64,000 bases of DNA, from contig NZ_JAMFKN010000001.1 in NCBI RefSeq assembly GCF_023487995.1, positions 186,001-250,000 on the forward strand, written 5' to 3'. Within the stretch, counting starts at the first letter, position 1. Every line of letters starts with the position of its first letter. Source of the stretch: Thermohalobaculum sediminis (GTDB lineage Bacteria; Pseudomonadota; Alphaproteobacteria; Rhodobacterales; Rhodobacteraceae). Below are positions 42,481-56,917 of the stretch, in pieces. Both the position numbers and the translations under genes were made by a program. The notes under the pieces were generated by a model, which saw nothing but the letters and a program-made list of their open reading frames with translations, was not told where the DNA came from and did no database searches.

Positions 42481-43185
42481 TCACCCTGGCGGCGTCAACT
42501 CGACCAGATGCACCGCAAGCCGTACGCGCCCGCCCGTGAAGCTGCCGCCCTCGGCGGTCAGCACAAGCGGCGTCGCGCTGAAATACGCCAGCGGCGCGCC
42601 AGTCACGCCGTGGACGAAGGATCCGGCGGATGTCCCGATCCCGCTGCCGTAGCGGTCGGGCCCACCTTCCGCGCCCAGCGACCAGCTCGCCGCCCCGCCG
42701 ATGCCGTCGAGCACCCTCCCCGTCACCCCGTAGACCACCGCCTTGTCGGGAATGACCGGCACCGTGACCGAGCTCGCGCCCGGCGCCACGTCGTGGTCGA
42801 TCTCGACGATCCGCGCCCTCGTCGAGGCGCCTCCCGCCGACAGGGCAACGACGTCGCGCCGCCACGCCACGCCATCGTGGACCAGCCAGCCCCGCGTCGC
42901 CGCGTCGAAGGCGCGGTAGCCTGCCCAGGGCGCGTGAAACTCCCACCCGCCGTTGACGTGGAACGCGATCCGTCCCTGCTGCCCGGCCCAGTCGCCACTC
43001 GCTTCCTCGGCGACCACGAATCGGTCACCCTCGATCGCGCCCGCCGGCGGGGCGTTCAGCGCCGCCGACAGCACCTGCCGCGACGCCAGCGCATCAAGCC
43101 GCAGCAACGCCTCGTTCACCGTCACGTGCTTTTGCGCCTGCGCGGCCTCCAAGAGGCCCAGTCCCATCATCTGCGTCTCAGTCAT
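42481..43185 (-). CDS. DUF2793 protein downstream of the GTA tail genes
   Basis: A 234-residue DUF2793-family protein. The conserved N-terminus MGLGLLEAAQAQKHVTVNEA and the aromatic repeats (HVNGGWEFHAPWAGYRAF; GWLVHDGVAWRRDVV) identify it. Members sit at the end of Rhodobacterales GTA clusters and in prophages and are thought to be tail-associated or receptor-binding, but this is not proven. The C-terminal half is beta-rich with many Gly residues, in keeping with a fibre-like fold. Its start overlaps the gp15 stop by eight bases, so translation is coupled. The last gene of the GTA block; cysE follows after 120 bases. Confidence 0.8.
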   Translation of the reverse strand: MTETQMMGLGLLEAAQAQKHVTVNEALLRLDALASRQVLSAALNAPPAGAIEGDRFVVAEEASGDWAGQQGRIAFHVNGGWEFHAPWAGYRAFDAATRGWLVHDGVAWRRDVVALSAGGASTRARIVEIDHDVAPGASSVTVPVIPDKAVVYGVTGRVLDGIGGAASWSLGAEGGPDRYGSGIGTSAGSFVHGVTGAPLAYFSATPLVLTAEGGSFTGGRVRLAVHLVELTPPG

Positions 43186-46100
43186 CGCTCGTGATCACCC
43201 TCTCTGGTCCCGGCCCGAAGACGGGCGAGATCTGGGCGACCGCCATCTCGATCGCGCTCACCCGCCCGTCGGCAACCTGCATTCCGGTCGTGTAGTCGAA
43301 TTCCGGCGCCGCGAGCGTGACCTCGCGCAGCAGCGCACCGCCCTGAGAAATGCGCAGCCGGTAGCGCTCCGCCTCCTCGGCTAGCGGCACCTCCGCAAGC
43401 CCCCACGCGTCGCCGCCGACGCGCGTGCGCCGGGTCCACCGGACCGCCAGCCCGCCCGGCCCCTGCCGCGCGCGCAGCCGCGCGGGCGCATAGGGCCGCA
43501 GTCCGATGCCCTCCGCGACACCCTCGATCGCAACGAAGGCCGGGTGCGAGAAGCCCAGCCGCGCCGGCCCCACGCGATAGCTGCGCACGACGCCGACCTC
43601 GTCGACCGCGAGAGGCAGCTCGAACAGCGCCTCGTCGATCAGCACGATCCGCCGCCCCGCGGGCACCTCGGCGCCCGAAAGCGCCTCGGTCCCGCGCTGG
43701 CCACGCAGGAAGCCGCCGAGCCGGTAGCGCCCGGGCGCCTCGAGCACGGCATCCCGCGCCTGGATCAGCTCCCACTGCCCCGGCGCCGCCTCCAGCGCCA
43801 TCAGGTTCGCGCCGTTGAGCACGCGCTCGGGCGGCTCGGACGAAAGCGCGTCGTCGGGCAGCGCAACCGCCACGCTCGCACGCTGCCAGCGCCCGGGCCG
43901 GCCTGGCGGCAGCGGCTCCAGCGTCAAGCCCATGCGCGCCGGGCGCGTGATCCTGCCGATCAGCTCGTGGCTCTCGCCATCGCGCGAGACATGGACGGCC
44001 ATGTCGCCGGCCCATGGTTCGGCCGCGACGGCAAGAAAGGGCCGGTGGTCGCGCGCGCTCCCGTCGGCCAGCGGCAGGTTCAGGAACACCGCCTCGACCG
44101 GGCCAGGCGGGCGCACCAGCGGCGGCTCGGCCGCATTTCCGGCCGCGCGACCGAGCAGGTAGAGCCCGGGGTCGATCCTGCCTGCCTCGACCTCCAGCGT
44201 CGCGCCGCGTGTCAGCCGCTCGATCCGCCAGGCGCGGCCGCCGCCTTCCCCGCCGATGGTCACGACGTCACCCGGCTCGACCGCGAGCGCCGAGGGCGGC
44301 AGGCGAAAGCTTGCCCGCACGCGCGTGCCCTCGCCCTCCGCCAGCCACCGCTCGGCCGTCGCCTGAGCCGTCGCGCCCGGCAGGCTTATGGCCAGCGAGG
44401 TCTCCGCCACGGCCGCGTCACCTGCGCCGGGCCGGCGCGTTTCGGCCACTGCGTGGCGATAGTCGCTCTCGGCCTCGTAATGGAAGAAGCGCACGATGTC
44501 GGGCTCCTCTCCACCGCTTGCGCGCACGACCTCGAGGGCGCGACCGGCCTCGGCGCCCTCGACCAGCGCCTCGGCGTCGAGCGGGTGGTCCATGCGGCCG
44601 CTCCGCATCCGAAAGCGCAGCACGCCACCGCTCTCGAAGGCATCGAAGCCATAGACCGTCATCAGCGGCTGCAGGGCCTCGCGCACGCTCGAGGGGCGCT
44701 CGATCACGAAGCCATGGACGACACCGAACAGCCCCGCGACATCGGCCTGCGCAATCCCTCCCGCGGCGCAGATCTCGGCCACCACGTCAGCCAGCCCGCC
44801 CGACAGCACCCGCCCGCTCAGCCAGTGCCCGACCCGGTGCGCGGGGCCGTCCGCCCAGATGCTCTCGCGCACCGGGAAATCCGGCCAGGGCCGCGCGTCC
44901 CATGTCCATACGAACACGCCATCCGCCGGGATCATCGGCCCGCCATAGACGGCCGAAACCGGGTTCGACCCGGCCTCCGCCCAATACCCCAGCTTGGCCT
45001 GCAGGAAGCGGCGCTGCATCTCGTCGTCGCGCACGCCGCGCGAACCGAAGGGCAGCGCGCTTTCCGAACTCCGCCCGTCGAGGAACAGGTTCGGGGCGTT
45101 GGCACCCAGATCCACCGCCGGGCATCCCGTCTCGGTCAGCCAGACCGGCTTCGACTGCGGAACCCACGCGGTCGGCGTCGCCTCCCGCACGCCGCCGATG
45201 CGGTTGTGATGCGGATTCAGCCACCAGCCCCGGATGTCCTTGGCCCGAAAGACCCAATCCTCGCCGTGGGCTCCGTCCACGATGGGGCTGCGTATCTGCG
45301 CGGCGCGATCCTCGTCGCTCGCATAGAACCAGTCGTAGTTCTCGCCGCCCTCGACATTCCCCTTCCGATAACCCAGCGAGTAGATCGACGGCGACAGCGC
45401 CGCATCGCGATGCCCCGCCTCGTGGCGCCAGTCGCTCAGCGAGGTGTAGTCGTCGATCCCCACGAAATCGATGTTCGCATCCGCCCACAGCGGATCGAGG
45501 TGGAAGATCACGTCGCCCGAGCCGTCTCCCGGCCGATGCCCCGAATACTCGCTCCAGTCGGCGGCATACGAGATCCTCGCCCCGGGCAGGATCAGGCGCA
45601 CCTCGGCGGCGAGGGCCCGCAACTGCTCGACCGCCGGATAGTCGGTGCGGGATGTGCGGATCTGCGTGAGCCCCCGCAGTTCGCTCCCGATACAGATGGC
45701 ATCGACCCCGCCCGCGGCCTTCGCCAGGGTCGCCAGATGCAGCACGAAGCGCCGCCAGCCCCACTCATCCGGTCCCGAATATGCAACCCCGTCGCCTGCA
45801 ACCGCGAAATCCGCGGCCCGCGCCGTGCCGAAAAAGGCCGCAACCTCCGCAGCCGCGGCCGGGGTCTGGTCGGTCGAGCCCTCGATCCCCGGCGCGCGCT
45901 CCAGCGTGATGCGCCCCCGCCAGGGAAAGGAGGACTGCTCGGCCGCGCCATAGGGGTCGGGAAGCGCATTGCCCGGCGGCACGTCCATCAGCAGGAACGG
46001 ATAAAGCATGACCCGCTTCCCGCGCGCCGTCATCTCGCGGATGCCGCGGACGACCGCCGCATCCGAGGGCGCGCCGCCGAAATTTGGCCTGCCCTGCTCG

Positions 46101-47104
46101 TCGCGGCTGACCAGCGGCGCCGTTCCCGTGGTGAGCCCCGCCACCCACCATTCACGGGGCGCCGAGCGCCTCCCGCGCTCCTCGACCCGTGGCTCGACCC
46201 GGCACCGCGCCGCCCGCAGGTCGGTCCCAAACCACGAGACGACCAGCGAGACCGCCTCGCAGTCCGGCAACTCGGCCTCGAGCTGATCGAGCGCGACGGC
46301 CAGATCCGCCCGCCCCTCGGCGTTGTTGACATTGGCAAAACGCGCCGTCCCGTTCGGCAGCAGATACCGCGCCGGCTCGGGGTCGAGCGAGAACTCCCCG
46401 GTTCCCGGCGCCATCGCGACCCCGCGGATCAGCGCGCTCAGCGGCGCGCTCGCCTCGGCCGAGCCCGCCGCCGCCGCCGCCATCGGGTTCGAGCGGAAAA
46501 CCTCGAAGCTCAGCTGCGGAATGCGGTTTCCGAACTCCCCCACAGGAAAGTCCTCGAAGACCACATAGGCCAGATCGCGATACGCCGGTGCGTTCTCGGC
46601 GCCCTCGACCGCCTCGATCTTCGGGTCGGGCAGCTGATCGGCCGAGCCGCGATGGATCCGCATCTCGAACCGCGCGGGGTCCATCGGCTGGCCGTCGGCC
46701 CAGATCCTCCCGATCCGGTCGATCGGCCCCTCGACCAGCCCGACGGCAAAGCTGATCGAGTAGGAGAACTCCCGCACCCGCTGCCCGCCGGTCGCCTTGC
46801 CGCCCGCGGTCGTCGTGCGAACCCGTTCGAGGTAGCGCGTCGACCAGATGATCTGCCCCGCAACCCGCATCCGCCCGAAGATCACCGGGATCGGCGCCCC
46901 CTCGGTCGAGCCCTGAATGCGCAGGGCCCGCGCACGCCCGACCTCGACGGCCCGGCTCCCCTGCCCCAGGATGCGCTGGTCGATCAGGCTTCCCGCCACC
47001 GCGCCCACGGCATTGCCCAGCGTCGCCGCGCCGACGCCCAGCACGCTGCCCCCGATCGCGCCGCCGATGGCCGAGCCGGCCGCGGACAAAAGAACCGTCG
47101 CCAT
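43178..47104 (-). CDS. GTA gp15, baseplate megatron with TIM-barrel domain
   Basis: The largest GTA protein (1308 residues), the baseplate hub-spike ('megatron') that contacts the cell envelope. The N-terminus is a Gly/Ala-rich hydrophobic segment (AIGGAIGGSVLGVGAATLG), then a hub domain (ALRIQGSTEGAPIPVIFGRM). A glycoside-hydrolase-like TIM barrel lies at about residues 390-750, with ICIGSELRGLTQ, DFVGIDDYTSLSDWR and PVWLTETGCPAVDLG. Phage tail/hub domains follow (VRFFHYEAESDYRHAVAE) and a beta-rich C-terminus. The open frame is complete with no frameshift. Its start shares one base with the gp14 stop (TGATG). Confidence 0.93.
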   Translation of the reverse strand: MATVLLSAAGSAIGGAIGGSVLGVGAATLGNAVGAVAGSLIDQRILGQGSRAVEVGRARALRIQGSTEGAPIPVIFGRMRVAGQIIWSTRYLERVRTTTAGGKATGGQRVREFSYSISFAVGLVEGPIDRIGRIWADGQPMDPARFEMRIHRGSADQLPDPKIEAVEGAENAPAYRDLAYVVFEDFPVGEFGNRIPQLSFEVFRSNPMAAAAAGSAEASAPLSALIRGVAMAPGTGEFSLDPEPARYLLPNGTARFANVNNAEGRADLAVALDQLEAELPDCEAVSLVVSWFGTDLRAARCRVEPRVEERGRRSAPREWWVAGLTTGTAPLVSRDEQGRPNFGGAPSDAAVVRGIREMTARGKRVMLYPFLLMDVPPGNALPDPYGAAEQSSFPWRGRITLERAPGIEGSTDQTPAAAAEVAAFFGTARAADFAVAGDGVAYSGPDEWGWRRFVLHLATLAKAAGGVDAICIGSELRGLTQIRTSRTDYPAVEQLRALAAEVRLILPGARISYAADWSEYSGHRPGDGSGDVIFHLDPLWADANIDFVGIDDYTSLSDWRHEAGHRDAALSPSIYSLGYRKGNVEGGENYDWFYASDEDRAAQIRSPIVDGAHGEDWVFRAKDIRGWWLNPHHNRIGGVREATPTAWVPQSKPVWLTETGCPAVDLGANAPNLFLDGRSSESALPFGSRGVRDDEMQRRFLQAKLGYWAEAGSNPVSAVYGGPMIPADGVFVWTWDARPWPDFPVRESIWADGPAHRVGHWLSGRVLSGGLADVVAEICAAGGIAQADVAGLFGVVHGFVIERPSSVREALQPLMTVYGFDAFESGGVLRFRMRSGRMDHPLDAEALVEGAEAGRALEVVRASGGEEPDIVRFFHYEAESDYRHAVAETRRPGAGDAAVAETSLAISLPGATAQATAERWLAEGEGTRVRASFRLPPSALAVEPGDVVTIGGEGGGRAWRIERLTRGATLEVEAGRIDPGLYLLGRAAGNAAEPPLVRPPGPVEAVFLNLPLADGSARDHRPFLAVAAEPWAGDMAVHVSRDGESHELIGRITRPARMGLTLEPLPPGRPGRWQRASVAVALPDDALSSEPPERVLNGANLMALEAAPGQWELIQARDAVLEAPGRYRLGGFLRGQRGTEALSGAEVPAGRRIVLIDEALFELPLAVDEVGVVRSYRVGPARLGFSHPAFVAIEGVAEGIGLRPYAPARLRARQGPGGLAVRWTRRTRVGGDAWGLAEVPLAEEAERYRLRISQGGALLREVTLAAPEFDYTTGMQVADGRVSAIEMAVAQISPVFGPGPERVITSDD

Positions 47105-47592
47105 CAGGATCTCCTCGTTTCGGCCGCGGCCGGAAAACGGAACGCCGCAACCACGCGCCGCGCCCAGGCGGGGCCCAGCCCCGTCTCGCAGACCGTGTGC
47201 CCCGAATAGGCATGGACGATGCGTGCCGCCGGGCCGAATTGCCCGGTCAGGATCGCGACATGCTTCGCCGGCCCCGCGGGGTGCATCCGCATGACCAGCA
47301 CGTCGCCCGCTTCCGCCTCGGCCAGCGGCACGGGGCTCAGATGCCGCGCAGCCGCCTCCAGCAGGCGCTCGCGCCCGCTCGCCTCGGACCAGTCGGGCGT
47401 GTAGGGCGGCGGCGCCTCGGGCTCGGCGCCCATCACCTCGCGCCAGACCCCGCGCAACAGGCCCAGGCAGTCGGCGCCCGCGCCCCGCACGCTGGCCTGA
47501 TGGCGATAGGGGGTGCCGATCCAGCCGCGCGCGGCCTGCACCACCGCGGCGCGCAGCCGCGCGTCAGCTCCGGAACAGCGAGCCGCCGTCAT
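47104..47592 (-). CDS. GTA gp14, NlpC/P60 cell-wall peptidase
   Basis: A 162-residue NlpC/P60 endopeptidase that cuts peptidoglycan during DNA delivery and sits at the baseplate. Catalytic Cys42 is in GADCLGLLRGVWRE and the histidine is in AKHVAILTG. The N-terminal ARGWIGTPYRHQ is the family's usual opening. The third polar residue is expected in the following strand (IVHAYSGHTV). The ATG at 47592 overlaps the end of gp13 by 29 bases. The frame is open further upstream, but that sequence is Arg/Thr-rich gp13 coding in another frame. Its stop overlaps the gp15 start by one base. Confidence 0.92.
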   Translation of the reverse strand: MTAARCSGADARLRAAVVQAARGWIGTPYRHQASVRGAGADCLGLLRGVWREVMGAEPEAPPPYTPDWSEASGRERLLEAAARHLSPVPLAEAEAGDVLVMRMHPAGPAKHVAILTGQFGPAARIVHAYSGHTVCETGLGPAWARRVVAAFRFPAAAETRRS

Positions 47593-48457
47593 GCGAGCCT
47601 CCCTCCTGCGGATAGCCGGCTGCCCAGTCGTCCCCCGGCATGTGCGGAAAGCCACGGAAATTGAGCGCGTTGTCGAACTTCGCTCGGCAGACGCCAAAGG
47701 TCTTGTCGCAGCCCGCCTCGATCACGAAGGCATCGCCCGAGGCAATCGGGACCGGGGCCGTCAGCCACAGCTCGATCTCGGTCACGGCGCCCACCTTGCG
47801 GTGCCGCCGCACCGTCGCGCTGCCCCCTGCGTTGGCGCCCGCGCTCCAGGTCAGGGTGCCGCCATCGAACCAACCCGGCTCGAAGGCCTCGATGCCGACG
47901 GCCAGGAAGATCGCCCGCTCCGGCATGCCGACCACCAGCCCCGTGCCGTGATAGCGTGGATCGCTCAGGTCGATCCCGCAGCGCGCCTCGCCAAGCCGCA
48001 GGTGGCAGGTGCGGACATAGACCCGCCCGATCGGCTTGTTTAGCTGCTCGGAGAGGCCAACCACCTCGGCCTCGAAGCTCGCGCCGCTCCGGCGGATCTC
48101 GCCGATCCGTCCGCGGCTTAGCACGATGCGGTCCTCGGGCGCCTGCCAGTCCACGACCCAGGCCGTCACCCCGGCGCCGTCATAGAGCCCCCGCTCGATG
48201 TCCGTCTCGGTGATCGCCTCGGACCGCAGCGCCCCCGAAACGGTCTGCGTGTCAACGCGCAGGCCCGTCGTGGTCTCGAGCGCGCCCGCCTCCAGCCCCG
48301 AGGCCGCCTCGCAACGGACGCCCTCGATGGTCACGTCGGCATCGTGATCGGTGAAGCCCAGCAGCACGCCGTCGCGCCGCTCGACAATCCAGCAGCGGCA
48401 CAGCGTCGTGACCCCCGAGGCGAGCTTCGCCGCCAGTCCCTCCGGTATCGCGCGCAT
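47564..48457 (-). CDS. GTA gp13, DUF2163 baseplate hub protein with cysteine quartet
   Basis: A 297-residue DUF2163/rcc01696-type hub protein forming part of the baseplate tube. The N-terminus is CRCWIVERRDGVLLGFTDHD. Four cysteines, C151 and C160 (CHLRLGEARC) and C250 and C257 (CDKTFGVC), match the conserved set that binds iron in the R. capsulatus particle and in lambda-like tail-tip L proteins. It overlaps gp12 by one base at its start (TGATG) and gp14 by 29 bases at its end. Confidence 0.92.
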   Translation of the reverse strand: MRAIPEGLAAKLASGVTTLCRCWIVERRDGVLLGFTDHDADVTIEGVRCEAASGLEAGALETTTGLRVDTQTVSGALRSEAITETDIERGLYDGAGVTAWVVDWQAPEDRIVLSRGRIGEIRRSGASFEAEVVGLSEQLNKPIGRVYVRTCHLRLGEARCGIDLSDPRYHGTGLVVGMPERAIFLAVGIEAFEPGWFDGGTLTWSAGANAGGSATVRRHRKVGAVTEIELWLTAPVPIASGDAFVIEAGCDKTFGVCRAKFDNALNFRGFPHMPGDDWAAGYPQEGGSHDGGSLFRS

Positions 48458-49083
48458 CAGACCCTCAGCTCCACCACCGGGACCGACGGGATCTCGCCGG
48501 CCTCGAAGGCGGCGAGGTTCACCTCGATCACATCCGTGTCGAACCGCACCGGCACGTCGAACTCGAAGCCCGCGGTGATCGTGGCGCCGGGTGCGACGGG
48601 GGCGTCGAACACCAACTCGCCCGTGGCCGCGTCCAGCGTGAATCCGTCCACCGCCTCGACGCCGCCCACCGCCACGCGGACACTGCCCGCGACCGGCTTG
48701 CGGATCGCGCGCTTGAAGGCGTGCGGGCCCGGCTCGTAGGTCTTGACCAGCTGGAAGACCTGCGCCTGCCCGTCACCCTTGCCGATCACCTGGTCGCTCA
48801 CCGCCGGGACCTCGCCCGGCGCGCAGGACTTGTGATCGAGCCAGTCCTTCCAGCGGAAGCCATGCAGCATCCCGCGCCTCGCCTCGAAGAAGGCCAGCAC
48901 CTCGTCCAGATCTGTCAGGCTCCGCACCCCCAGCCCCGCGTCATAGCGCCGGCGCGAGGCGCCCCAGGGGGTGTTGCGCTCCTCGTGGCCGTTGACCAGC
49001 CGGACGATCTCGGTCCGCCGCTCGATTCCGCCCGATGATCCGAACGAGATCGAGGCCGGAAAGCGCACCTCGTGAAATGCCAT
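48457..49083 (-). CDS. GTA gp12, DUF2460 distal tail protein
   Basis: A 208-residue distal tail protein that joins the tube to the baseplate. Signature DUF2460 segments are FHEVRFPASISFGSSGG, RLVNGHEERNTPWG and ARRGMLHGFRWKDW. The C-terminal half is a beta sandwich (VRVAVGGVEAVDGFTLD; GELVFDAPVAPGATITAGFE). Starts and stops overlap or nearly touch those of its neighbours: 12 bases after gp11, one-base overlap into gp13. Length and order are as in R. capsulatus. Confidence 0.92.
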   Translation of the reverse strand: MAFHEVRFPASISFGSSGGIERRTEIVRLVNGHEERNTPWGASRRRYDAGLGVRSLTDLDEVLAFFEARRGMLHGFRWKDWLDHKSCAPGEVPAVSDQVIGKGDGQAQVFQLVKTYEPGPHAFKRAIRKPVAGSVRVAVGGVEAVDGFTLDAATGELVFDAPVAPGATITAGFEFDVPVRFDTDVIEVNLAAFEAGEIPSVPVVELRV

Positions 49084-49095
49084 GCCGGGCCCTCC

Positions 49096-49761
49096 TCACA
49101 TCTGCCGCTCGCCACGCGCCACCGCGCGGGCAAGCTGGGCCGAGACCTGCGCGCGCGAGCGCCGAAAGCCTTCGACATCCGGCGTCTGGATGTTGACCGT
49201 GATCTGCGGGGCGCCCCGCGCGCCAGCCGCCGCGACCCCCAGCCGCCCGTCGGCCCCGCGCGACAGCGGCAGGATCGCCTCGGGCCCCGCCTCGCCCATC
49301 AAGCCGGTCGCTCCCCGCATCGGGAACAGCGTGGGGCCATCGACGACGCCCCCCTGCGCGAAGGCCCGCACCCGGCCCGCGCTGAATGCTCCGCCCTGCG
49401 CGAACCCGAACAGCGAGCCGATCCCGCCAGACAGCGACCCGATCGCCCCGGCGATGCCCGAGCTCACCGCCCCCTGCACCGGCCGCAGCGCGGCATCGAG
49501 CGTCGAGCCGATGATGTCCGACGCCAGCCCCCGCATCACGTCGCCCAGCTTCGCGCCGCCAAAGACCGCCTTGTCGAAGGCCTCCCTCAGCCCCGACCCC
49601 AGCGAGCGCGACAGCCTGCGCGTCTCGGCATCCATCGCCCGCAGCTCGGCCGTCGCCGCCCCCAGCTCCGCGGCAAAGCCGCCCGAGAGCCCCCTCGCCT
49701 CCCGCAGCCCGCGCGAGAACTCGCCGAAGGCCGGCAGGTCGGCCTCGTTGAAAGTCGCCAT
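49096..49761 (-). CDS. GTA gp11, tape measure protein
   Basis: A 221-residue tape measure protein, far shorter than those of phages, in keeping with the short GTA tail. The N-terminal helix MATFNEADLPAFGEFSRGLR leads into a long helical stretch and an Ala/Gly-rich hydrophobic segment (GAVSSGIAGAIGSLSGGIGS). Further on are FAQGGAFSAGRVRAFAQGG and GLMGEAGPEAILPLSRG, a C-terminal motif common to tape measure proteins of lambdoid and GTA tails. It starts right after gp10.1 (one-base gap), which with gp10 serves tail assembly. Confidence 0.9.
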   Translation of the reverse strand: MATFNEADLPAFGEFSRGLREARGLSGGFAAELGAATAELRAMDAETRRLSRSLGSGLREAFDKAVFGGAKLGDVMRGLASDIIGSTLDAALRPVQGAVSSGIAGAIGSLSGGIGSLFGFAQGGAFSAGRVRAFAQGGVVDGPTLFPMRGATGLMGEAGPEAILPLSRGADGRLGVAAAGARGAPQITVNIQTPDVEGFRRSRAQVSAQLARAVARGERQM

Positions 49762-49762
49762 C

Positions 49763-49972
49763 TCAACCCTCCGTCACGTCGGGAAATCGCGCCATCAGCT
49801 CCAGCACGGCACTGCGCGAAGGCGCGGCGGGGCGGCGCACCAGCCCCGCCCCCTGCAGCGCCGCGGCGAATTCGACCGGCGTCATCGACCAGAACACCTC
49901 CGGCGCCAGCCGCAGGGCGCCCAGCCCCGCCGCCATTATCGCGGGCCACGCGATGCGGGCGGGCGCACTCAC
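49763..49972 (-). CDS. GTA gp10.1, small tail assembly chaperone-like protein
   Basis: A 69-residue protein of the rcc01693/DUF2376 type. It is one helical domain: AWPAIMAAGLGALRLAPEVFWSMTPVEFAAAL, of which PEVFWSMTPVEF is diagnostic. Such genes sit just before the tape measure gene and act as tail assembly chaperones in phages. Its start overlaps the gp10 stop by four bases (ATGA), so translation is coupled. Functional assignment is by position and family. Confidence 0.85.
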   Translation of the reverse strand: MSAPARIAWPAIMAAGLGALRLAPEVFWSMTPVEFAAALQGAGLVRRPAAPSRSAVLELMARFPDVTEG

Positions 49973-50295
49973 GCCCCGCCCTCAGCCCCGGCCCCGAAGC
50001 TGCGCGCCATCAGCGCCACGCCCGCCCGCAGCGCGCCCAGCGCACCGCCGCCGATCTCGGCGCGGGCAAGGGCCTCCTCGTCAACCGCCTCTCCCGCGCC
50101 GCGCAGCCCGGCCGCGAGCAGCGCGATCAGATCGACCGCCGCCACTTGCCCGCTCTCGAACCGCTCGGCCAGCGCGACCAGGCTGCCGGCCTTCAGCCGC
50201 TCCTCCAGCTCGGCCAGCGCGCCCAGCGTCAGCCGCATCCGCCGCTCGACGCCATCGACCACCAGCCCCACCTCGCCACGCGCCGGGTTGACCAT
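49969..50295 (-). CDS. GTA gp10, tail assembly protein (gene transfer agent family)
   Basis: A 108-residue protein of the GTA gp10 family, resembling phage tail assembly chaperones. The N-terminus is NPARGEVGLVVDGVERRMRL, followed by TLGALAELEERLKAGSLVAL, a conserved helix. It starts two bases after the gp9 stop and ends in a four-base overlap with gp10.1. The C-terminus is Gly/Ala-rich. The start at 50295 is fixed by the gp9 stop and by the family N-terminus; the frame upstream overlaps gp9. Confidence 0.88.
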   Translation of the reverse strand: MVNPARGEVGLVVDGVERRMRLTLGALAELEERLKAGSLVALAERFESGQVAAVDLIALLAAGLRGAGEAVDEEALARAEIGGGALGALRAGVALMARSFGAGAEGGA

Positions 50296-50297
50296 GC

Positions 50298-50711
50298 TCA
50301 CAGCTCCGCGAACACGACCTGCCCGGCCGAGGCGAGCGAAACCTCGAAGGCCGCCTCGCCGTCGTGACTGCCGGAATATTCGAGGCTCGTGACCTGGAAC
50401 GCCCCGGTAACGGTGCCGAAATCGGGGATCACCAGCTGGAAGGCCGGCGCGCGACCCTCGAAGAACACCCGCAGCAAGGCCGCGTCCGACGCCTCGTCCC
50501 GGAAGATGCCCGAGCCCGAGACCGCGGCCGTCCGCAGCCCCGCCCCCGCCAGCAGCTCGCGCCACTGCCCCGGCGCCTCGGCGGTGGTCACGTCGACCGT
50601 GTCCTGGTTGAAGCTCAGCCGCGTGGCCCTCAGCCCCGCGACCGTGACGAAGGCGCCGCTGCCCCCCTCGTCGAGCTTGATGAGAAGATCCCGTCCCTTC
50701 TGGGCCGCCAT
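50298..50711 (-). CDS. GTA gp9, major tail tube protein
   Basis: A 137-residue major tail protein of the TP901-1 type. It begins GRDLLIKLDEGGSGAFVTVAG, with LRATRLSFNQDTVDVTTA and EYSGSHDGEAAFEVSLASAG, and a beta-rich fold. It stacks to form the tail tube. AGAACGGAC lies before the ATG. It lies 36 bases downstream of the tail terminator gene gp8, which is frameshifted here. The 137-residue length is normal for GTA gp9. Confidence 0.93.
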   Translation of the reverse strand: MAAQKGRDLLIKLDEGGSGAFVTVAGLRATRLSFNQDTVDVTTAEAPGQWRELLAGAGLRTAAVSGSGIFRDEASDAALLRVFFEGRAPAFQLVIPDFGTVTGAFQVTSLEYSGSHDGEAAFEVSLASAGQVVFAEL

Positions 50712-50747
50712 GTCCGTTCTCCGCGTTGTATGGTGAAAAGGGGCCGG

Positions 50748-51175
50748 TCAGGCCGTGTCCTCGACCAGCACCCGAAAGCGCAGGTCGATGCGCCGCAGCG
50801 TGTCGCGCTCCTCGCGCTTGGTGCGGGCGCTGACAAAGCTCACCAGCACCGCCCGCCCGCGCTCGAGCGCCAGCGGCGCACCCAGCAGCGCGTCGCTGAC
50901 CGCCCCCGCCACCGCCTTGGCTTCGCCAAAGCTGCGCCGGGGGGCGCGACGACCGAGACGCCGACCAGGTGGCCCGCCCCCGCGCGCTCGGCGCTCGACC
51001 AGTCCGACGCCTGATCGTCGCCGAGGATCAGGTAGATGCCCTCCTCGGCGCCGGGCGTGCGCTCCTGCGGCGCGCCGTCATGGATGCGCCCGCCGGTGGC
51101 GGCGGCCACCGCCGGGTCGGCCGCCAACCGCTCGTAGACCGCCTTCTGCAGCGGCCAGGCAAGGGCATAGGTCAT
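50748..51175 (-). pseudogene. GTA gp8 tail terminator (DUF3168), frameshifted as written
   Basis: The N-terminal frame reads MTYALAWPLQKAVYERLA through GHLVGVSVVAP and then runs into a low-complexity PRRWRGRSATRCW tail, stopping at 50840. Moving to the -1 frame at a six-base G run (50939-50944 on the plus strand) restores the family C-terminus: RRSFGEAKAVAGAV, LLGAPLALERGRAVLVSF and RRIDLRFRVLVEDTA, ending at 50748. One more base in the run gives a 142-residue protein of normal size. The tail terminator caps the tail tube at the head end. It overlaps gp7 by four bases. It could be a true mutation, a sequencing indel, or recoding. Confidence 0.85.
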
Positions 51176-51510
51176 GACGCACCTCCCTCCTCGACCCAGA
51201 CGCGCAGGTAGGCGCCCTCGGGGTCGGCCTCGGCCACGCCGCGGATCGCAAAGACCCGGCTGCCAAGGCGAAACCGCTGATCCGCGGCGGGCCGGCGGGG
51301 CGAGCCCGGCGGCGCCGCGCGGACCGTCAGCTCATGCGTGACGCGCGAGACCGGCCGCTCGCCCGCCACCACCTCGCGCGCGGCGACCGGGCGCAGCGCG
51401 GCCCAGTGGCTGCCCAGCCCTACCCATTCCTCGACGATGCCGCCGCCGCCATCCGGCGTACGGGCAAGCTGCTCCAGCACCAGCTTGCGGGTCAGTCGCG
51501 GGATACCCAT
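51172..51510 (-). CDS. GTA gp7, head-tail stopper/head closure protein
   Basis: A 112-residue head-closure (stopper) protein that seals the connector after packaging. The ATG at 51510 gives GIPRLTRKLVLEQLARTPD, followed by GLGSHWAALRPVAAREVVAG, the SPP1 gp16-like core (HWA-LRP), and YLRVWVEEGG at the end. Its stop overlaps the gp8 start by four bases (ATGA). An open extension upstream is Arg-rich and overlaps gp6, so it was not used. The function is taken from the GTA structure and family. Confidence 0.88.
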   Translation of the reverse strand: MGIPRLTRKLVLEQLARTPDGGGGIVEEWVGLGSHWAALRPVAAREVVAGERPVSRVTHELTVRAAPPGSPRRPAADQRFRLGSRVFAIRGVAEADPEGAYLRVWVEEGGAS

Positions 51511-51520
51511 CGCCGCCCCC

Positions 51521-52102
51521 TCACAGCCGCACCGCGCGGTGGCGGTCGAGGATCGCCGCCGCCTCCGCCGGCATCCCGCCCGCCGCCCGGCCATGGCCGC
51601 CGCGGAACTCGTAGAAATGCGCGGCCATCAGCATCACCGCCTGCGCCAGATCCCCCGGCACCCCGTCCCAGCCGGATGCATGGCCCGCGGCGAAGCTCAG
51701 CTCGGCCCAATAGCCGGTCGGGATCGGGCTCAGCGCCGCACCGCCCGCGCCCGTGAGCCGCTGCCGCGTGGTGCCAGGCTCGAGCTCCCAGGACGTCGGC
51801 GGAACCTCGATGACCGCGGCGCCCGAGACCAGCGCCAGCCGCGCGATCCCCGCGACCGGCCCCACCGGCAGGACCAGGTGCCCGTCGCGGTCCCAGCGTG
51901 AGACCTTCAGCTCGAAGCCGCGCGCGATCAGTGCCTGCCCGATCTGCCGCTCGACCGCCGCCGCGGCGTTGCGCAGGCAGGTGGCGAGGATCGCATCCTC
52001 CGACCCGTCGTCGAGAAAGCCGTTCGCCAGGCGCAGATGCGCGCCGAACTCGGCCAGGGGCCACGCGATCGGGGAATTGCCGTCCGCCTCTCTCAGAATC
52101 AC
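51521..52102 (-). CDS. GTA gp6, head-tail adaptor protein
   Basis: A 193-residue adaptor that binds the portal and builds the connector. The N-terminal helices IAWPLAEFGAHLRLANGFLD and LRNAAAAVERQIGQALIARG match the gp6-like (HK97 gp6) fold, and the segment GYWAELSFAAGHASGWDGVP followed by PGDLAQAVMLMAAHFYEFR is typical of GTA gp6. It begins 133 bases after the capsid gene, the longest intergenic gap inside the cluster, and ends 10 bases before gp7. Confidence 0.9.
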   Translation of the reverse strand: MILREADGNSPIAWPLAEFGAHLRLANGFLDDGSEDAILATCLRNAAAAVERQIGQALIARGFELKVSRWDRDGHLVLPVGPVAGIARLALVSGAAVIEVPPTSWELEPGTTRQRLTGAGGAALSPIPTGYWAELSFAAGHASGWDGVPGDLAQAVMLMAAHFYEFRGGHGRAAGGMPAEAAAILDRHRAVRL

Positions 52103-52235
52103 CGTCTTGCCTCCGCAGCGATGCCAGAACCGGTGCCGCCGGGGACCTGCCCCCGGCGGCGTCTCACGCGCCCACGAAGCGCACGCAGGGCGGGTTTCAT
52201 CCCGCCGCCGCGTCTCGCGCCCGGCGCGCGCGGGA
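52103..52235 (-). other. Hairpin-rich spacer between capsid gene gp5 and gp6
   Basis: The 133-base gap carries a perfect 10-bp stem (GCCGCCGGGG at 52135-52144 with CCCCGGCGGC at 52151-52160) and a 6-bp stem (GGCGGG at 52189-52194 with CCCGCC at 52201-52206). A third, GGGATC-AGGC-GATCCC, covers the gp5 stop codon. None has a T-run, so they look like partial attenuators or RNA-stabilising stems that could set capsid levels above connector proteins. Confidence 0.55.
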
Positions 52236-53412
52236 TCAGGCGATCCCGAACTTCAGGGTCTTGATGGCCGCGAAGTCGGTGACATCGCCCCCCACGCGCC
52301 GGGTGGCGAAGAAGCTCACATGCGGCTTCGCCGAGAACGGGTCGCGCAGGATGCGGATGTCGGGCCGCTCGGCGATGGTGTAGCCGTGGCCGAAATCGCC
52401 GAAGGCGATGGCGAAACTGTCGGCGGCGATGTCGGGCATCTCCTCGACGATCGTCACCGGATAGCCCATCAGCCGCGCCGGATGCTCGACCGACAGCCCC
52501 TCGACCCACATGAAGCGGCCCTGGCTGTCCTTCATCTTGCGCACCTCGCCCGCGGTCTTCAAGTTCATCACGAAGGCCGCATTGGCGCGGTAATCCGCCC
52601 CCAGCGCATAGACGAGGTCGACCAGCGCGTCCGCCGGGTCGTTCGGGTCGAACCCGCCCGAGGTGCCGGTGGCGACATAGCCGATGCTGCCCCAGGCCCA
52701 GCCGTCATTGTCGATCATCGGCTTCGTGAGAAACCCCTCCGGCTTGTTCACCCCGTCGCCGCTGACGAAGGCAGCCGACTCGGCGCGCTTGAAGCGGTCG
52801 GCGATGCGCTCGGCCAGCCACGCCTCGACGTCGAAGGCCGCGTCCTCAAGGATCCGCTGCGACGCCCGCGGGCTCGCCGACAGCTCGTGCAGCGGGATCG
52901 AGATGCGCTCGAACACTGGCCCCGCGGTCTCGCCCACCGCCGTGACCTCGTCGATCCAGCCCGCCCCCAGCTCGGCGTGGTCCACCAGCACGTCGTAGGC
53001 ACCCGCCTCGACCTGCACGACGCGGGCGATGGCGCGCAGCGAGCCGCCCGAGCGCAGCACGCTCTCGACCTGCGCCGCCGTGCGCGGATCGACCAGATAG
53101 CCGCCCTCGGCGGCCACCGCCGTGTTCATCCCCTTGGTGCCGAGGTCCAGCGCCCTCAGCGCCCCCCTCGTCGCCCTGCCGCACATAGGCGGCAAGGGCC
53201 TTCTGATGCGGCATCCCCTCGGCTGCGCGGGCCTCCAGCACGGGGCGGCGGGTCTCGTGCGACTTGACGCCCAGGGCGTCGATGCGGTTCGTCATCTCGG
53301 TCATGCGCTTGCTCAGATCATCCTTGAAGGTGTTGAAGCCCTTGAGAAACTCGGCAGCCGCCGCCTTCGCCTCGGCGGGTGCCGAGGACGTCTCGTCGAT
53401 GGTCTCGCTCAT
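52236..53412 (-). pseudogene. GTA gp5 major capsid protein (HK97 fold), frameshifted as written
   Basis: The N-terminal scaffold (delta) part reads MSETIDETSSAPAEAKAAAA to KALAAYVRQGDEG in one frame, which then runs out of sense and stops at 52846. The mature capsid part, ALRALDLGTKGMNTAVAAEG to DFAAIKTLKFGIA, is in the +1 frame, ending at 52236. The switch falls at a six-base C run on the plus strand (53162-53167, G6 on the coding strand). One base fewer would give a 391-residue protein of usual length. The mature part is otherwise intact (VDHAELGAGWIDE; WLAERIADRFKRAES). An in-frame ATG at 53186 has no Shine-Dalgarno. Capsid assembly needs both parts joined, or the C-terminal part made separately. 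Confidence 0.9.
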
Positions 53413-53456
53413 CGTCTGATCCAGTCCTTGGAGGGAAGAAGAACCCCGACCGGGGC

Positions 53457-54020
53457 TCAGGAGGGTTGGCCCGCCCCGTCGGTAAGGGCTGCCGCAAGTG
53501 CCTGCACGAAGCCGGGGGACGCACTACCCCCCAGACTCGCGCGGGCCGTGGGAAGCATCGGAAACGTCACCAGCGACACCTCCCACAAATCGATCTCGAT
53601 CAGGTTGCGCCCGCCCGTGTGGCGGTGCGGCTCGGCCTTCACGACGCGATAGCCGATCGACAGCCCGTCGATCGCCCCCGCCCGCATCAGTGCCAGCGCC
53701 TCGACGCCCTGCGCCACCTCGGGCAGGATGCGCCCACGCACCCAGAGGCCCCGGCTGTCCTCGCGCAATTCATGCCAGACGCCGATCACCCGCTCCGGAT
53801 CGTGCTGCCACAGGAACCTTACCGTCCGCCCCGCCGCCGCGCGCCGCTCCAGCGAGCGCGCAAACGCCCCCGGCATCATCCGGTCGCCGCCCTGATCGAC
53901 CTCACCGAAGACCGAGGCATAACCCGTGACCTCCCCCGCCTCGGCCCCGGCCGTCAGGTCGGTGAGGGACAGGAATTTCCGCTCGGGCGGGCGCGTCGCC
54001 CCCCGCATCGCCGCTCTCAT
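53457..54020 (-). CDS. GTA gp4, HK97-type prohead protease
   Basis: A 187-residue serine protease (U35/S78 type) that trims the capsid scaffold. Catalytic His is in FLWQHDPERVIG and Ser in DGLSIGYRVVKAE. EVTGYASVFGEVDQGGDRM starts the protease domain. GGAGGATCG precedes the ATG. It is 15 bases from the portal gene, leaving no room for the gp3.5 found between them in R. capsulatus. A weak stem (AACCCC-GACC-GGGGCT on the plus strand) covers the stop codon and the start of the 44-base spacer before gp5. Confidence 0.92.
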   Translation of the reverse strand: MRAAMRGATRPPERKFLSLTDLTAGAEAGEVTGYASVFGEVDQGGDRMMPGAFARSLERRAAAGRTVRFLWQHDPERVIGVWHELREDSRGLWVRGRILPEVAQGVEALALMRAGAIDGLSIGYRVVKAEPHRHTGGRNLIEIDLWEVSLVTFPMLPTARASLGGSASPGFVQALAAALTDGAGQPS

Positions 54021-54035
54021 CGCGATCCTCCGCTG

Positions 54036-55211
54036 TCAGGCGCCGTCGCGGGGCGCGAAGCCCAGCGCCGCGCGCTTCTCGTCGTCCGTCAGAAAGGGGG
54101 CGGCCGCGATCCGCCGCCAAAGCGCCTCGCGCTCGGCTGCAAGCGCCGGGATGGCGTCGAGATCGGGCTCCAGCATCAGCCGCGCACCGGCATTGTCGCC
54201 CAGCCACACCGCCAGCGCGCAGGCCACCTTCTTCGCCAGCGGCAGCACCGTCTGGCGATAGAAGGCGCGATTGGCCTCCTGGAAGTTCGCGTAGGTGTTG
54301 TCCCCCGGCAGTCCCAGCAGCATGGGCGGCACCCCGAAGGCAAGCGCGATGTCCCGCGCCGCGGCGTGCTTGGTCTCCAGGAACTCCATGTCCTGCGGCG
54401 AATACCCCATCGGCCGCCAGTCGAGCCCGCCCTCCAGCAGCAGGGGCCGCCCGGCATTGCGCGCGCCTTGATGGTTGTCCTCCAGCTCGCGGACCAGCCG
54501 CTGATACTGCTCGTCGGACATCTGCGCCCCATCCTTGCCGCCAAAGACGATGGCGCCCGACGGCCGCGCTGCGTTGTCGAGCAGCGCCCTCGACCACCGG
54601 CTCGCCGCGTTGTGCACGTCGATCGAGGCCGCGGCCGGCTCCAGTGGGCTCATCCCGTAGTGGTCGTCCAGCGGATGGAAGGCCCTGACATGCAGGATCG
54701 GCTTCCAGGCGCCCGAATTGTCGAAGCGGTGCTTCGCGCGGCCCACGCTGTAGTCATAGGCCGCGGGCCAGCCGTCGGGCCCCGGCACTACCGCCATCCG
54801 GTCGGGCCGCAGGCAATGCAGCTCGCGCGGATGGCCGTCCTCGCCCGGCTCGGCCGCCTCGACATAGGCATTGCCCGCCAGTTGCAGGTAGCCGTAGACG
54901 CATTCCAGAAAGCTGCGCCCGTCCTGCGCCGGGTTGGGGCGCGCCAGCAGGCCCAGCACCGGGTGCTCGACCATCCGCGCGCCGCCCTCGGCCAGCACCA
55001 GCGGCAGCGCCGCCGCGGCCTCGGCGACCATCCGCACGGCGCGGAAGGCGATCACGTTGCCCTCGAAGCCGTTGCGGGTCAGCGAGACCATGTCCCGCGG
55101 ACTCCAGACCGCGCGGCCCGGCCCGTGGAACGCCATCATCGGCCCGGCCGCGGCCGACGCCTTCTCCTCGCGCGCCCGGCCAGCGGACGCACGGAACAGT
55201 CTCCATCCCAT
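54036..55211 (-). CDS. GTA gp3, portal protein
   Basis: A 391-residue HK97-type portal protein that forms the dodecameric channel at one vertex. Signature segments are GRAVWSPRDMVSLTRNGFEG, FRAVRMVAEAAAALPLVL, YLQLAGNAYVEAAE and LRPDRMAVVPGPDGWP. The C-terminal half contains FGVPPMLLGLPGDNTYANFQ, typical of this class. The ATG at 55211 follows GGGAGATACC. It is downstream of the terminase with a 28-base gap. Length and order are normal for a GTA. Confidence 0.93.
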   Translation of the reverse strand: MGWRLFRASAGRAREEKASAAAGPMMAFHGPGRAVWSPRDMVSLTRNGFEGNVIAFRAVRMVAEAAAALPLVLAEGGARMVEHPVLGLLARPNPAQDGRSFLECVYGYLQLAGNAYVEAAEPGEDGHPRELHCLRPDRMAVVPGPDGWPAAYDYSVGRAKHRFDNSGAWKPILHVRAFHPLDDHYGMSPLEPAAASIDVHNAASRWSRALLDNAARPSGAIVFGGKDGAQMSDEQYQRLVRELEDNHQGARNAGRPLLLEGGLDWRPMGYSPQDMEFLETKHAAARDIALAFGVPPMLLGLPGDNTYANFQEANRAFYRQTVLPLAKKVACALAVWLGDNAGARLMLEPDLDAIPALAAEREALWRRIAAAPFLTDDEKRAALGFAPRDGA

Positions 55212-55239
55212 GTCTTGGTATCTCCCGTCTCTCCGGGGG

Positions 55240-56583
55240 TCAGAGGGCTCGAACCCTGGGGCTCCCGGCCTCAGCCGCCAGCACAAGATCCGTGATCGCC
55301 CAGACCAGCGCATCAAGCCGGTCGGGGCTTCTGCTTCCGCCGCTCGCGGCGGCGGTGAAGCTCGTCATCTGGTCCTCGAGCTCGCGAAAGGCGCCCAGAT
55401 GGTGGACCCTCCCCTGCTCGTAGAGCGCGGCCACCGGCTCGGCCCTCAGCCGCTTGCCGTGGCGCGCCCGCACGGGGCGATAGCTCAGCGCCGGCGCGAC
55501 CTGGCGCAGCACGCTCTCGACCATCTCGCCGCCCTGGTTGACCTCGGCCACCACCCGGTCGGCGCCGTGGGCGTCATAGGCCGCGGCCACCACGCCCGCC
55601 CATCCGGCCGGGCTCAGGCCCCGGACGCTCAGGTCGGCCAGCACATAGGCCCGCGCCTCGCCCGACCGGACGCCGCGGCGCAGGCCCGCCACCACGATGC
55701 CGCACTCGTCCGCATCCGCGCCCGAACTTACGGGCGGGTCCACCGCTACCACCACGCGGTCGAGCTCCGGCGCCTCCGCGACCCGTCCCGCCTCGATCAG
55801 CGCCCGGCTCCACAGGGCACCCGCCCGGTCGCGGATCAGCTCGCCCCCCAGTTCCTGCCGGCCCAGCGCGGTGCGGCCGTAGCGCGCCTCCAGCGCCTCG
55901 ACGAAGCCGGGCGCGAGGTTCGCACGGTTCGCCCGCGTCGGCGCATGGGTGACGACCGTGCCTGCGGTCCCGAGGACCTCCACCAGCACGTCGTTGTCGC
56001 GCGGCGTCGTCGTCACGATCTGGCGCGGGTCGGAGCCCAGCCGCAGGCAGAACTGCAACATCTCCCAGGCCTCGCGGCACCGCCACCACTTGGCCAGCTC
56101 GTCCGACCAGGCACAGTCGAACTGCGGGCCGCGCAGCGCCTCGGGGTTGGCGGCCGAGGCCATCATCGCCTCGGCCCCGTTCGGCCAGACCAGCTTGCCG
56201 TGGCTCAGGTTGACCACCGGCCGCCGGTCGGGCGGCGTGACCGCCAGCAGCCCCGAGTCGCCCTCGACCATCACCGCCCGAACCTGGTCGATCGTCTCGC
56301 CCAGCAGGCAGACCCGCCGGCAGCGCCCCGACGCCAGCGGCGTCGGGCCTTCCACCTGCGCGCGCACCCATTCCGCCCCGGCGCGGGTCTTGCCCGCGCC
56401 GCGGCCTCCCATGATGACCCAGACCCGCCAGTCGCCTTCTGGCGCCAACTGGTGGTCCGGCAATGCCCACAGCTCCCACAGCCAGGGCATCGCGGCGAGC
56501 GCGTTCTCCGAGAGCCCCTCGAAGAACGCCTCCCGCGCCGCCTCAGGCAGCGAGGCGATCGAGCCTGCGGGCGATTTCCGCAC
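55240..56583 (-). CDS. GTA gp2, large terminase
   Basis: The DNA-packaging motor, 447 residues. The ATPase domain has Walker A GGRGAGKT (residues 59-66) and Walker B with D162-E163 in FDCAWSDELAKW. The nuclease domain contains VVVAVDPPVSSGADADECG and AEVNQGGEMVESVLRQ, followed by RARHGKRLRAEPVAALYEQG. In GTAs it packages headfuls of host DNA without a specific cos or pac site. GTG at 56583, preceded by CTGGAGG, gives the best start and overlaps the end of gp1 by 41 bases. The longer ATG-type start at 56622 lies deep in gp1. Confidence 0.93.
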   Translation of the reverse strand: MRKSPAGSIASLPEAAREAFFEGLSENALAAMPWLWELWALPDHQLAPEGDWRVWVIMGGRGAGKTRAGAEWVRAQVEGPTPLASGRCRRVCLLGETIDQVRAVMVEGDSGLLAVTPPDRRPVVNLSHGKLVWPNGAEAMMASAANPEALRGPQFDCAWSDELAKWWRCREAWEMLQFCLRLGSDPRQIVTTTPRDNDVLVEVLGTAGTVVTHAPTRANRANLAPGFVEALEARYGRTALGRQELGGELIRDRAGALWSRALIEAGRVAEAPELDRVVVAVDPPVSSGADADECGIVVAGLRRGVRSGEARAYVLADLSVRGLSPAGWAGVVAAAYDAHGADRVVAEVNQGGEMVESVLRQVAPALSYRPVRARHGKRLRAEPVAALYEQGRVHHLGAFRELEDQMTSFTAAASGGSRSPDRLDALVWAITDLVLAAEAGSPRVRAL

Positions 56584-56917
56584 GGGCGGCCTCCAGGTCG
56601 ATGACGGTCCGGCCGGGCACATCCGCCTCGGCCGCCTTCATCAGCTTCACTTCGATCTCGTTGACGGTCTGCCACGCCTTCTGCGTGCGGTTGGCGAGGT
56701 CGGCGACGATCTTCAGCCGCTCCTCCGCCTTCCGGTCCGTCTCGCCGTCATCCGGCGCGCCCTCGCGCGCCCGCTTGCGGAGGCGTCTCGTCTCGGCCTC
56801 CAACTCCCTTGCCAGGCTGGCGAAGATCCTGCGTGCATGCCTCAGTGTCGACCGCACCTCAGTCGACTCGTCAGCGCATGCGCGGCACCGCCGGCCGGTG
56901 ATCCCGGTCGTGTCCAC
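56543..56917 (-). CDS. GTA gp1, small terminase-like protein
   Basis: A 124-residue protein with the features of GTA gp1, recently recognised as the small terminase. It is mostly helical with a coiled-coil core (TRRLRKRAREG; AEERLKIVADLANRTQKAWQ) and a C-terminal helix ARAEIARRLDRL that probably contacts the large terminase. GTG at 56917 follows AAAGGCGTC. Residues 11-14 form a CRAC pair, not part of the core. It is the first gene of the GTA transcript, so the GTA promoter should lie just upstream. GTA TerS proteins bind DNA weakly, consistent with non-specific packaging. Confidence 0.8.
   Translation of the reverse strand: MDTTGITGRRCRACADESTEVRSTLRHARRIFASLARELEAETRRLRKRAREGAPDDGETDRKAEERLKIVADLANRTQKAWQTVNEIEVKLMKAAEADVPGRTVIDLEAARAEIARRLDRLAA

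What the first reader, a model, noticed from the sequence alone, without database searches (positions are those of the whole stretch)
53150..53195. Major capsid gene of the GTA is split by a one-base indel in a G6 run
The scaffold part and the mature capsid part are in different frames and join exactly where family members have the segment ...GDEG-ALRAL. Removing one base from the six-base run at 53162-53167 restores a normal 391-residue protein. The rest is perfectly conserved, so any loss is recent. The break falls inside the region removed by the protease, just before the mature capsid begins.
Basis: seen in the sequence. Interest (0 to 1): 0.75.

Follow-up and report, generated by a model that had tools for sequence, protein, structure and literature searches.

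The report
GTA capsid gene broken by frameshift
A bacterium's DNA-sharing, virus-like particle has its shell gene cut in two by a one-base slip, and a second particle gene is broken in a similar way, so the system is probably dying in this lineage, as it already has in two close relatives.

Summary
The break is real in this assembly. The capsid gene (minus strand, 53412 to 52236) lies in two frames that meet at the six-base run 53162-53167. The pieces match RcGTA capsid residues 5-79 and 79-384. All 31 GTA-type relative loci compared, and 18 of 18 viral-contig loci compared, read straight through.

So 'the rest is perfectly conserved' is wrong.

In 1.376 Mb of this genome I found three other likely breaks. 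Two in 13.7 kb is unlikely from evenly spread error: P 4e-4, or 0.03 given the first. Error is not excluded; no reads were available.

Best reading: recent loss of an RcGTA-type cluster. Two of four genus mates have lost the whole core; there, terminase codons 1-175 are fused in frame to g15. The same codon-exact fusion is in at least 16 of 394 family genomes, and the trees suggest more than one origin. That side finding is the more novel one.

The parts
53162..53167 (-). six-base G run (coding strand) where the capsid changes frame
53160..53412 (-). upstream capsid piece (N-terminal, scaffold-type part), 84 codons in frame from ATG 53412
   Evidence: matches RcGTA capsid 5-79
52236..53162 (-). 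downstream capsid piece (HK97-fold shell part); its open frame reaches back to a TTG at 53195
   Evidence: RcGTA capsid 79-384; TIGR01554 and PF05065
52846..53159 (-). run-on of the upstream frame past the break, non-capsid, about 104 residues
50938..51175 (-). g8 tail terminator, upstream piece
   Evidence: RcGTA Rcc01690 residues 1-73; PF11367 1-69 (whole ORF 50842-51175)
50748..50944 (-). g8 tail terminator, downstream piece in another frame; change of frame at 50942-50945 beside a six-base run at 50939-50944
   Evidence: Rcc01690 residues 77-134; PF11367 68-124
43178..47104 (-). g15 megatron, one open frame
   Evidence: NF048004
55240..56622 (-). g2 terminase large subunit, one open frame
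   Evidence: PF03237, PF17289
54036..55316 (-). g3 portal, one open frame
   Evidence: name from synteny, recalled
53457..54020 (-). g4 prohead protease, one open frame
   Evidence: name from synteny, recalled
47104..52102 (-). remaining tail and neck genes g6, g7, g9-g14; no split against G001 or G002 other than g8
   Evidence: g10 = PF11836; other names from synteny, recalled
56543..56917 (-). g1, small-terminase position, open
   Evidence: name from synteny, recalled
42487..43170 (-). DUF2793 gene next to g15
   Evidence: PF10983

Best explanation
This is an RcGTA-type gene transfer agent cluster that has recently lost function in this strain. Slippage at G/C homopolymers during replication shifted the frame in the capsid gene and in the tail-terminator gene (inferred). 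Ribosomes that start at 53412 make the N-terminal capsid part plus about 104 non-capsid residues; the shell part is no longer joined to it in one chain (shown from sequence; expression not tested). Without whole capsid and tail terminator no particles form (inferred from the places of these proteins in RcGTA). The lineage around it is losing GTA as well: two genus mates keep only the two ends of the cluster, fused.
For: Frame break unique to this genome: 0 of 31 loci and 0 of 18 share it. Second break in g8. Only three other likely breaks in 1.376 Mb by a finder with recall 185 of 261; two or more in the 13.7 kb cluster has P 4.5e-4, or 0.03 for one more given the first. Of 7 coding G/C runs of six or more in the cluster 2 sit at breaks, against 0 of 207 elsewhere in the same 800 kb. 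One capsid-family match in the genome, so no spare copy. G003 and G004 lack portal and GTA-type capsid and carry a collapsed cluster.
Against: No reads; both lesions are in homopolymers, the classic place for sequencing error, and another break outside the cluster (C1:119720) also lies at a six-base run, so some error or decay goes on elsewhere too. The fair P, given that the first break was handed to me, is only 0.03. All other cluster genes are open, and the full cluster is kept, so loss, if real, is recent. Two genus mates (G001, G002) have unbroken capsids.
Confidence: 0.7

Rival explanations
1. Sequencing or assembly error: both homopolymers are miscounted and the cluster is whole.
For: Both breaks are at G/C runs of six; shifts go in opposite directions; relatives are intact; the cluster is more GC-rich than most of the contig (0.725 against 0.707; 13% of windows as rich).
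Against: 207 other G/C runs of six or more in the same 800 kb show no break; three other likely breaks in 1.36 Mb; clustering P 4.5e-4, or 0.03 given the first.
Confidence: 0.22
2. Recoding: ribosomes or RNA polymerase slip at the G run, +1 or -2, and make enough whole capsid.
For: A G-rich site; -2 and +1 shifts are used in tailed phages, in Mu among others, for tail genes (PMC5009743, passages); low-level slippage on G runs can rescue an indel in a viral gene (same passages).
Against: The run is absent at this place in 31 of 31 relative loci, so no conserved site; the capsid is needed in 145 copies per particle (PMC9765227, passage), not as a minor product; g8 would need a second, different rescue.
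Confidence: 0.04
3. Reversible phase variation: the runs switch GTA production off and on in a population.
For: Two homopolymer breaks in one cluster.
Against: Runs of six are short for phase variation (recalled); two genes would have to revert together; the run is not kept in relatives.
Confidence: 0.03
4. Split but working: the shell part is started internally (for example at ATG 53186 or 53135) and assembles with the N-terminal part as a separate scaffold.
For: In-frame ATG codons just before the shell part; AGAAGG lies upstream of 53195.
Against: AGAAGG is ordinary coding sequence here; no relative is split; HK97-type scaffold domains work joined to the shell protein (recalled); g8 stays broken.
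Confidence: 0.01

Closest known systems
RcGTA of Rhodobacter capsulatus (capsid Rcc01687, tail terminator Rcc01690; PDB 6tba and related)
   Same: Gene order, capsid and terminator homology, g15 equivalog model.
   Different: RcGTA has whole genes and makes particles (PMC7296036, passages and section 7); here g5 and g8 are split.
Decaying or incomplete RcGTA-like clusters of alphaproteobacteria
   Same: Loss of genes needed for particles; incomplete clusters are said to be abundant (PMC9765227, passage).
   Different: Here the cluster is full-length and the lesions are two one-base frame changes; in G003 and G004 the loss leaves one precise in-frame fusion gene.
Programmed frameshifting in phage tail genes (lambda G/T, Mu)
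   Same: G-rich stretch in a phage-derived gene (PMC5009743, passages).
   Different: Capsid rather than tail chaperone, no conserved site, no split relative.

Membership tests
RcGTA-type gene transfer agent head-tail cluster | Syntenic genes g1 to g15 homologous to RcGTA | tested here: met
RcGTA-type gene transfer agent head-tail cluster | Capsid and tail terminator each in one open frame | tested here: not met
   g5 and g8 split
RcGTA-type gene transfer agent head-tail cluster | Particles with random host DNA | not testable with these tools
   no wet data
RcGTA-type gene transfer agent head-tail cluster | Unlinked GTA genes (gafA, spikes, lysis) | tested here: inconclusive
   gafA was looked for only by synteny with lipA, and that synteny is not kept in the five genus genomes; a DUF2793 gene is present; the rest not tested
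Recently inactivated gene (pseudogene) | Lesion breaks a frame kept by relatives | tested here: met
Recently inactivated gene (pseudogene) | Further lesions in the same functional unit | tested here: met
   g8
Recently inactivated gene (pseudogene) | Lesion seen in independent reads or strains | not testable with these tools
   one genome per species is held; no near-identical DNA found
Programmed frameshift site | Slip site conserved among relatives | tested here: not met
   0 of 31 loci have a frame change there

The most novel reading that the evidence does not exclude
GTA collapse in this family repeatedly follows one path: the core is lost so that terminase codons 1-175, ending at the Walker B W-x-D-E, join g15 at its W-x-x-E-x-G-C, in frame and at the same codon in 17 of 17 cases. 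The chimeric gene is then kept as a new host gene: 14 of 17 are unbroken over their length, Walker A and W-x-D-E are invariant in those 14, and dN/dS is 0.11 to 0.31 in five fused pairs. The window's strain, with its first lesions, would be at an early stage of this road beside its sister G004, which has the fusion. Because a fragment spanning the fusion would fit the 4 to 4.5 kb that a GTA head packages (PMC7296036, passage) and the 13.7 kb cluster would not, GTAs could even spread the deletion but never restore the cluster (speculation).
Probability: 0.35. Interest if true: 0.75.

Novelty: new member of a known kind. Interest (0 to 1): 0.45.

Why it matters
Why cells keep GTAs, whose producers lyse, is unsettled (Redfield and Soucy 2018, PMC6209664, abstract and passages). 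A lineage caught losing its GTA, beside sisters that have lost the core and others that keep it, allows comparison of recombination, lysis and fitness in near relatives. The recurrent, codon-exact terminase-g15 fusion suggests that a piece of the cluster is worth keeping without particles, which can be tested by a simple gene removal.

Tried and rejected
(1) A split shared by relatives: none seen. (2) A first HMM run trained on the longest ORFs followed antisense shadow frames and gave 188 candidates in G000:C11; discarded, and retrained from GTA and housekeeping genes. (3) C11:774340 (overlapping genes) and G001:C2:216305 (terminase frame open) were judged false after reading all six frames. 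(4) Near-identical DNA from another strain: none in phages or plasmids, and none by exact pattern in viral contigs. (5) gafA by synteny with lipA: inconclusive (one search used the wrong stretch of G000, another the right one). (6) Direct repeats as the cause of the recurrent fusion point: 12 to 18 of 30 bases identical in seven full clusters, with 1,673 to 69,867 in-frame window pairs equally good (one search was one codon off). (7) AlphaFold of the G004 fusion with 14 sequences: mean pLDDT 66.6 and below 50 around the junction; no structural reading, no fold search. (8) PADLOC: 0 hits for two fusion proteins. (9) In one search proteins 3 and 4 came from the wrong locus; one search read the right one, by eye only. 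(10) In one search the query pieces g5dn and g14 were cut out of frame and their rows mean nothing; one search printed nothing and was redone; one search failed on a stretch returned as N and was redone. (11) Papers on broken or fused GTA genes: searches (listings) and passages of PMC11409702, PMC6821227, PMC13420450, PMC9765227 and PMC6209664 showed no such fusion; the library holds open-licence papers only.

Full report
What was claimed. The capsid gene of a GTA cluster is split by a one-base indel in the six-base run 53162-53167, with the rest conserved.

What is there. The cluster lies on the minus strand (43178-56917) between mltG, fabF, acpP, fabG and fabD on one side and a DUF2793 gene on the other. 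The capsid ORF starts at ATG 53412 and leaves the capsid frame at the run; the capsid goes on in the next frame to 52236. Searched apart, the pieces match the solved RcGTA capsid at residues 5-79 and 79-384, so nothing is missing between them. A frame HMM puts the switch at 53162/53163; hits of G002 change frame between 53177 and 53167, and G001 gives two frames as well. The genome has one capsid-family match.

Relatives. In one search all 31 GTA-type loci other than the window's read through the join; two distant copies (36% and 29% identity) are open too; L002 and L003 repeat genomes G002 and G008 and were not counted. In one search, 18 of 18 viral-contig loci read through (20 fetched, two at 26% identity left out). 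In one search, 236 of 295 family genomes have a match; among the listed places (the list was cut) the own open frame of 351 codons is the shortest, and only G151 (360, contig end) is otherwise below 392.

A second lesion. Hits of G002 proteins to the window split between frames in two genes, g5 and g8; against G001 the capsid splits, and for g8 only the first part is listed. The g8 pieces match RcGTA tail terminator Rcc01690 at 1-73 and 77-134 and PF11367 at 1-69 and 68-124. The frame changes at 50945-50942, beside a six-base run, by +2 where the capsid changes by +1.

Error or loss? I followed coding frame over 800 kb of the same contig and 576 kb of others and got six candidates. Two are g5 and g8. 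C11:774340 is a pair of overlapping genes. C11:56768 (regulator-like, TPR region; by eye), C1:119720 (histidine-kinase-like; by eye; it too has a six-base run) and C17:2655 (a transposase with its HTH and DDE parts in different frames) look like true breaks. The finder recovers 185 of 261 simulated breaks. In 778 kb of two genus mates it gave one candidate, false on reading. With three outside, 0.03 are expected in the cluster; P of two or more is 4.5e-4, and 0.03 for one more given the first, which is the fair figure since the first was handed to me. Of 214 coding G/C runs of six or more in that 800 kb, 7 are in the cluster and 2 of these are at breaks, against 0 of 207 elsewhere. Evenly spread error is therefore unlikely but not excluded.

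Genus context. Five genus genomes are held, this one included. G001 and G002 have capsid and portal in one frame; G003 and G004 have no portal and no GTA-type capsid. Of G001, G003 and G004, G004 is nearest at the locus (fabF 94% against 86% and 84%). At the same locus G003 and G004 carry g1 and an in-frame fusion of g2 codons 1-175 with g15 from about codon 659 (open frames 831 and 821, 54.7% identical).

The fusion elsewhere. With the first 334 residues of the G004 fusion, 16 of 394 family genomes, G004 included, give one match across both parts (the list of places was cut, so at least 16); with G003, 17. All 17 join at the same codon. In 16 of 17 fabF and mltG lie in the fetched stretch; in G074 neither does. 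Fourteen are open over their length; G059 changes frame, G317 has a stop, G143 runs off its contig. In a tree of the GTA parts (22 of 24 rows; two partial ones left out) well-supported branches force at least three changes of state, and in a tree of fabF and mltG (22 rows) at least two; the window's full cluster is sister to the G004 fusion at 100/100 in both. Such changes may be several fusions, or one with regains or exchange. Counting-method dN/dS for five fused pairs is 0.11 to 0.31 in both parts (the second method gave a value once in 14 tries). Two cautions: if the fusions arose separately and late, part of this constraint dates from the full cluster; and at least two fusions are broken. 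DNA likeness of the two ends is not special, so a repeat does not explain the shared codon; exchange between lineages or selection for this very join remain.

How it most likely works. Slippage changed two homopolymers (inferred). Capsid and tail terminator are no longer encoded as whole chains (shown). Particles are not made (inferred). Recoding is unlikely, since the site is not conserved and 145 capsid copies per particle are needed (PMC9765227, passage), though -2 and +1 shifts do occur in phages (PMC5009743, passages).

Known or new. A broken GTA cluster is a known kind; this is a new and well-placed case. The recurrent fusion may be new; the searches for it are in Tried and rejected.

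Noticed in passing
G004 C1:138973-141468 (L149/L150, L169); G003 C68 (L151); fused loci L177-L191: In-frame fusion of terminase codons 1-175 to g15 from about codon 659 at the GTA locus, same codon in 17 of 17 loci, 14 of them unbroken; trees suggest more than one origin or exchange.
   Followed up: partly
window 50748-51175: Second frame break in the cluster, in the tail-terminator gene g8.
   Followed up: yes
G000 C11:56768 (L042, about 16768): Likely frame break in a regulator-like gene with a TPR region.
   Followed up: partly
G000 C1:119720 (L201, about 19720): Likely frame break in a histidine-kinase-like gene, beside a six-base G run.
   Followed up: partly
G000 C17:2655 (L168): Transposase with HTH and DDE parts in different frames.
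   Followed up: partly
G004 C30:29465-30400 (L007); G001 C11:123631-124329 (L008): Distant capsid genes (36% and 29% identity) away from the GTA locus, perhaps prophages.
   Followed up: no
L003 (WNWL01000006.1): The record is titled Oceanobacillus sp. HTM 045 but carries an RcGTA-type cluster at 74% identity, and a contig of the same length belongs to G008 of the window's family: the name looks wrong.
   Followed up: no
L198/L199, L225-L228: No obvious gafA beside lipA in the five genus genomes, unlike the synteny described for Rhodobacterales; read by eye only.
   Followed up: partly
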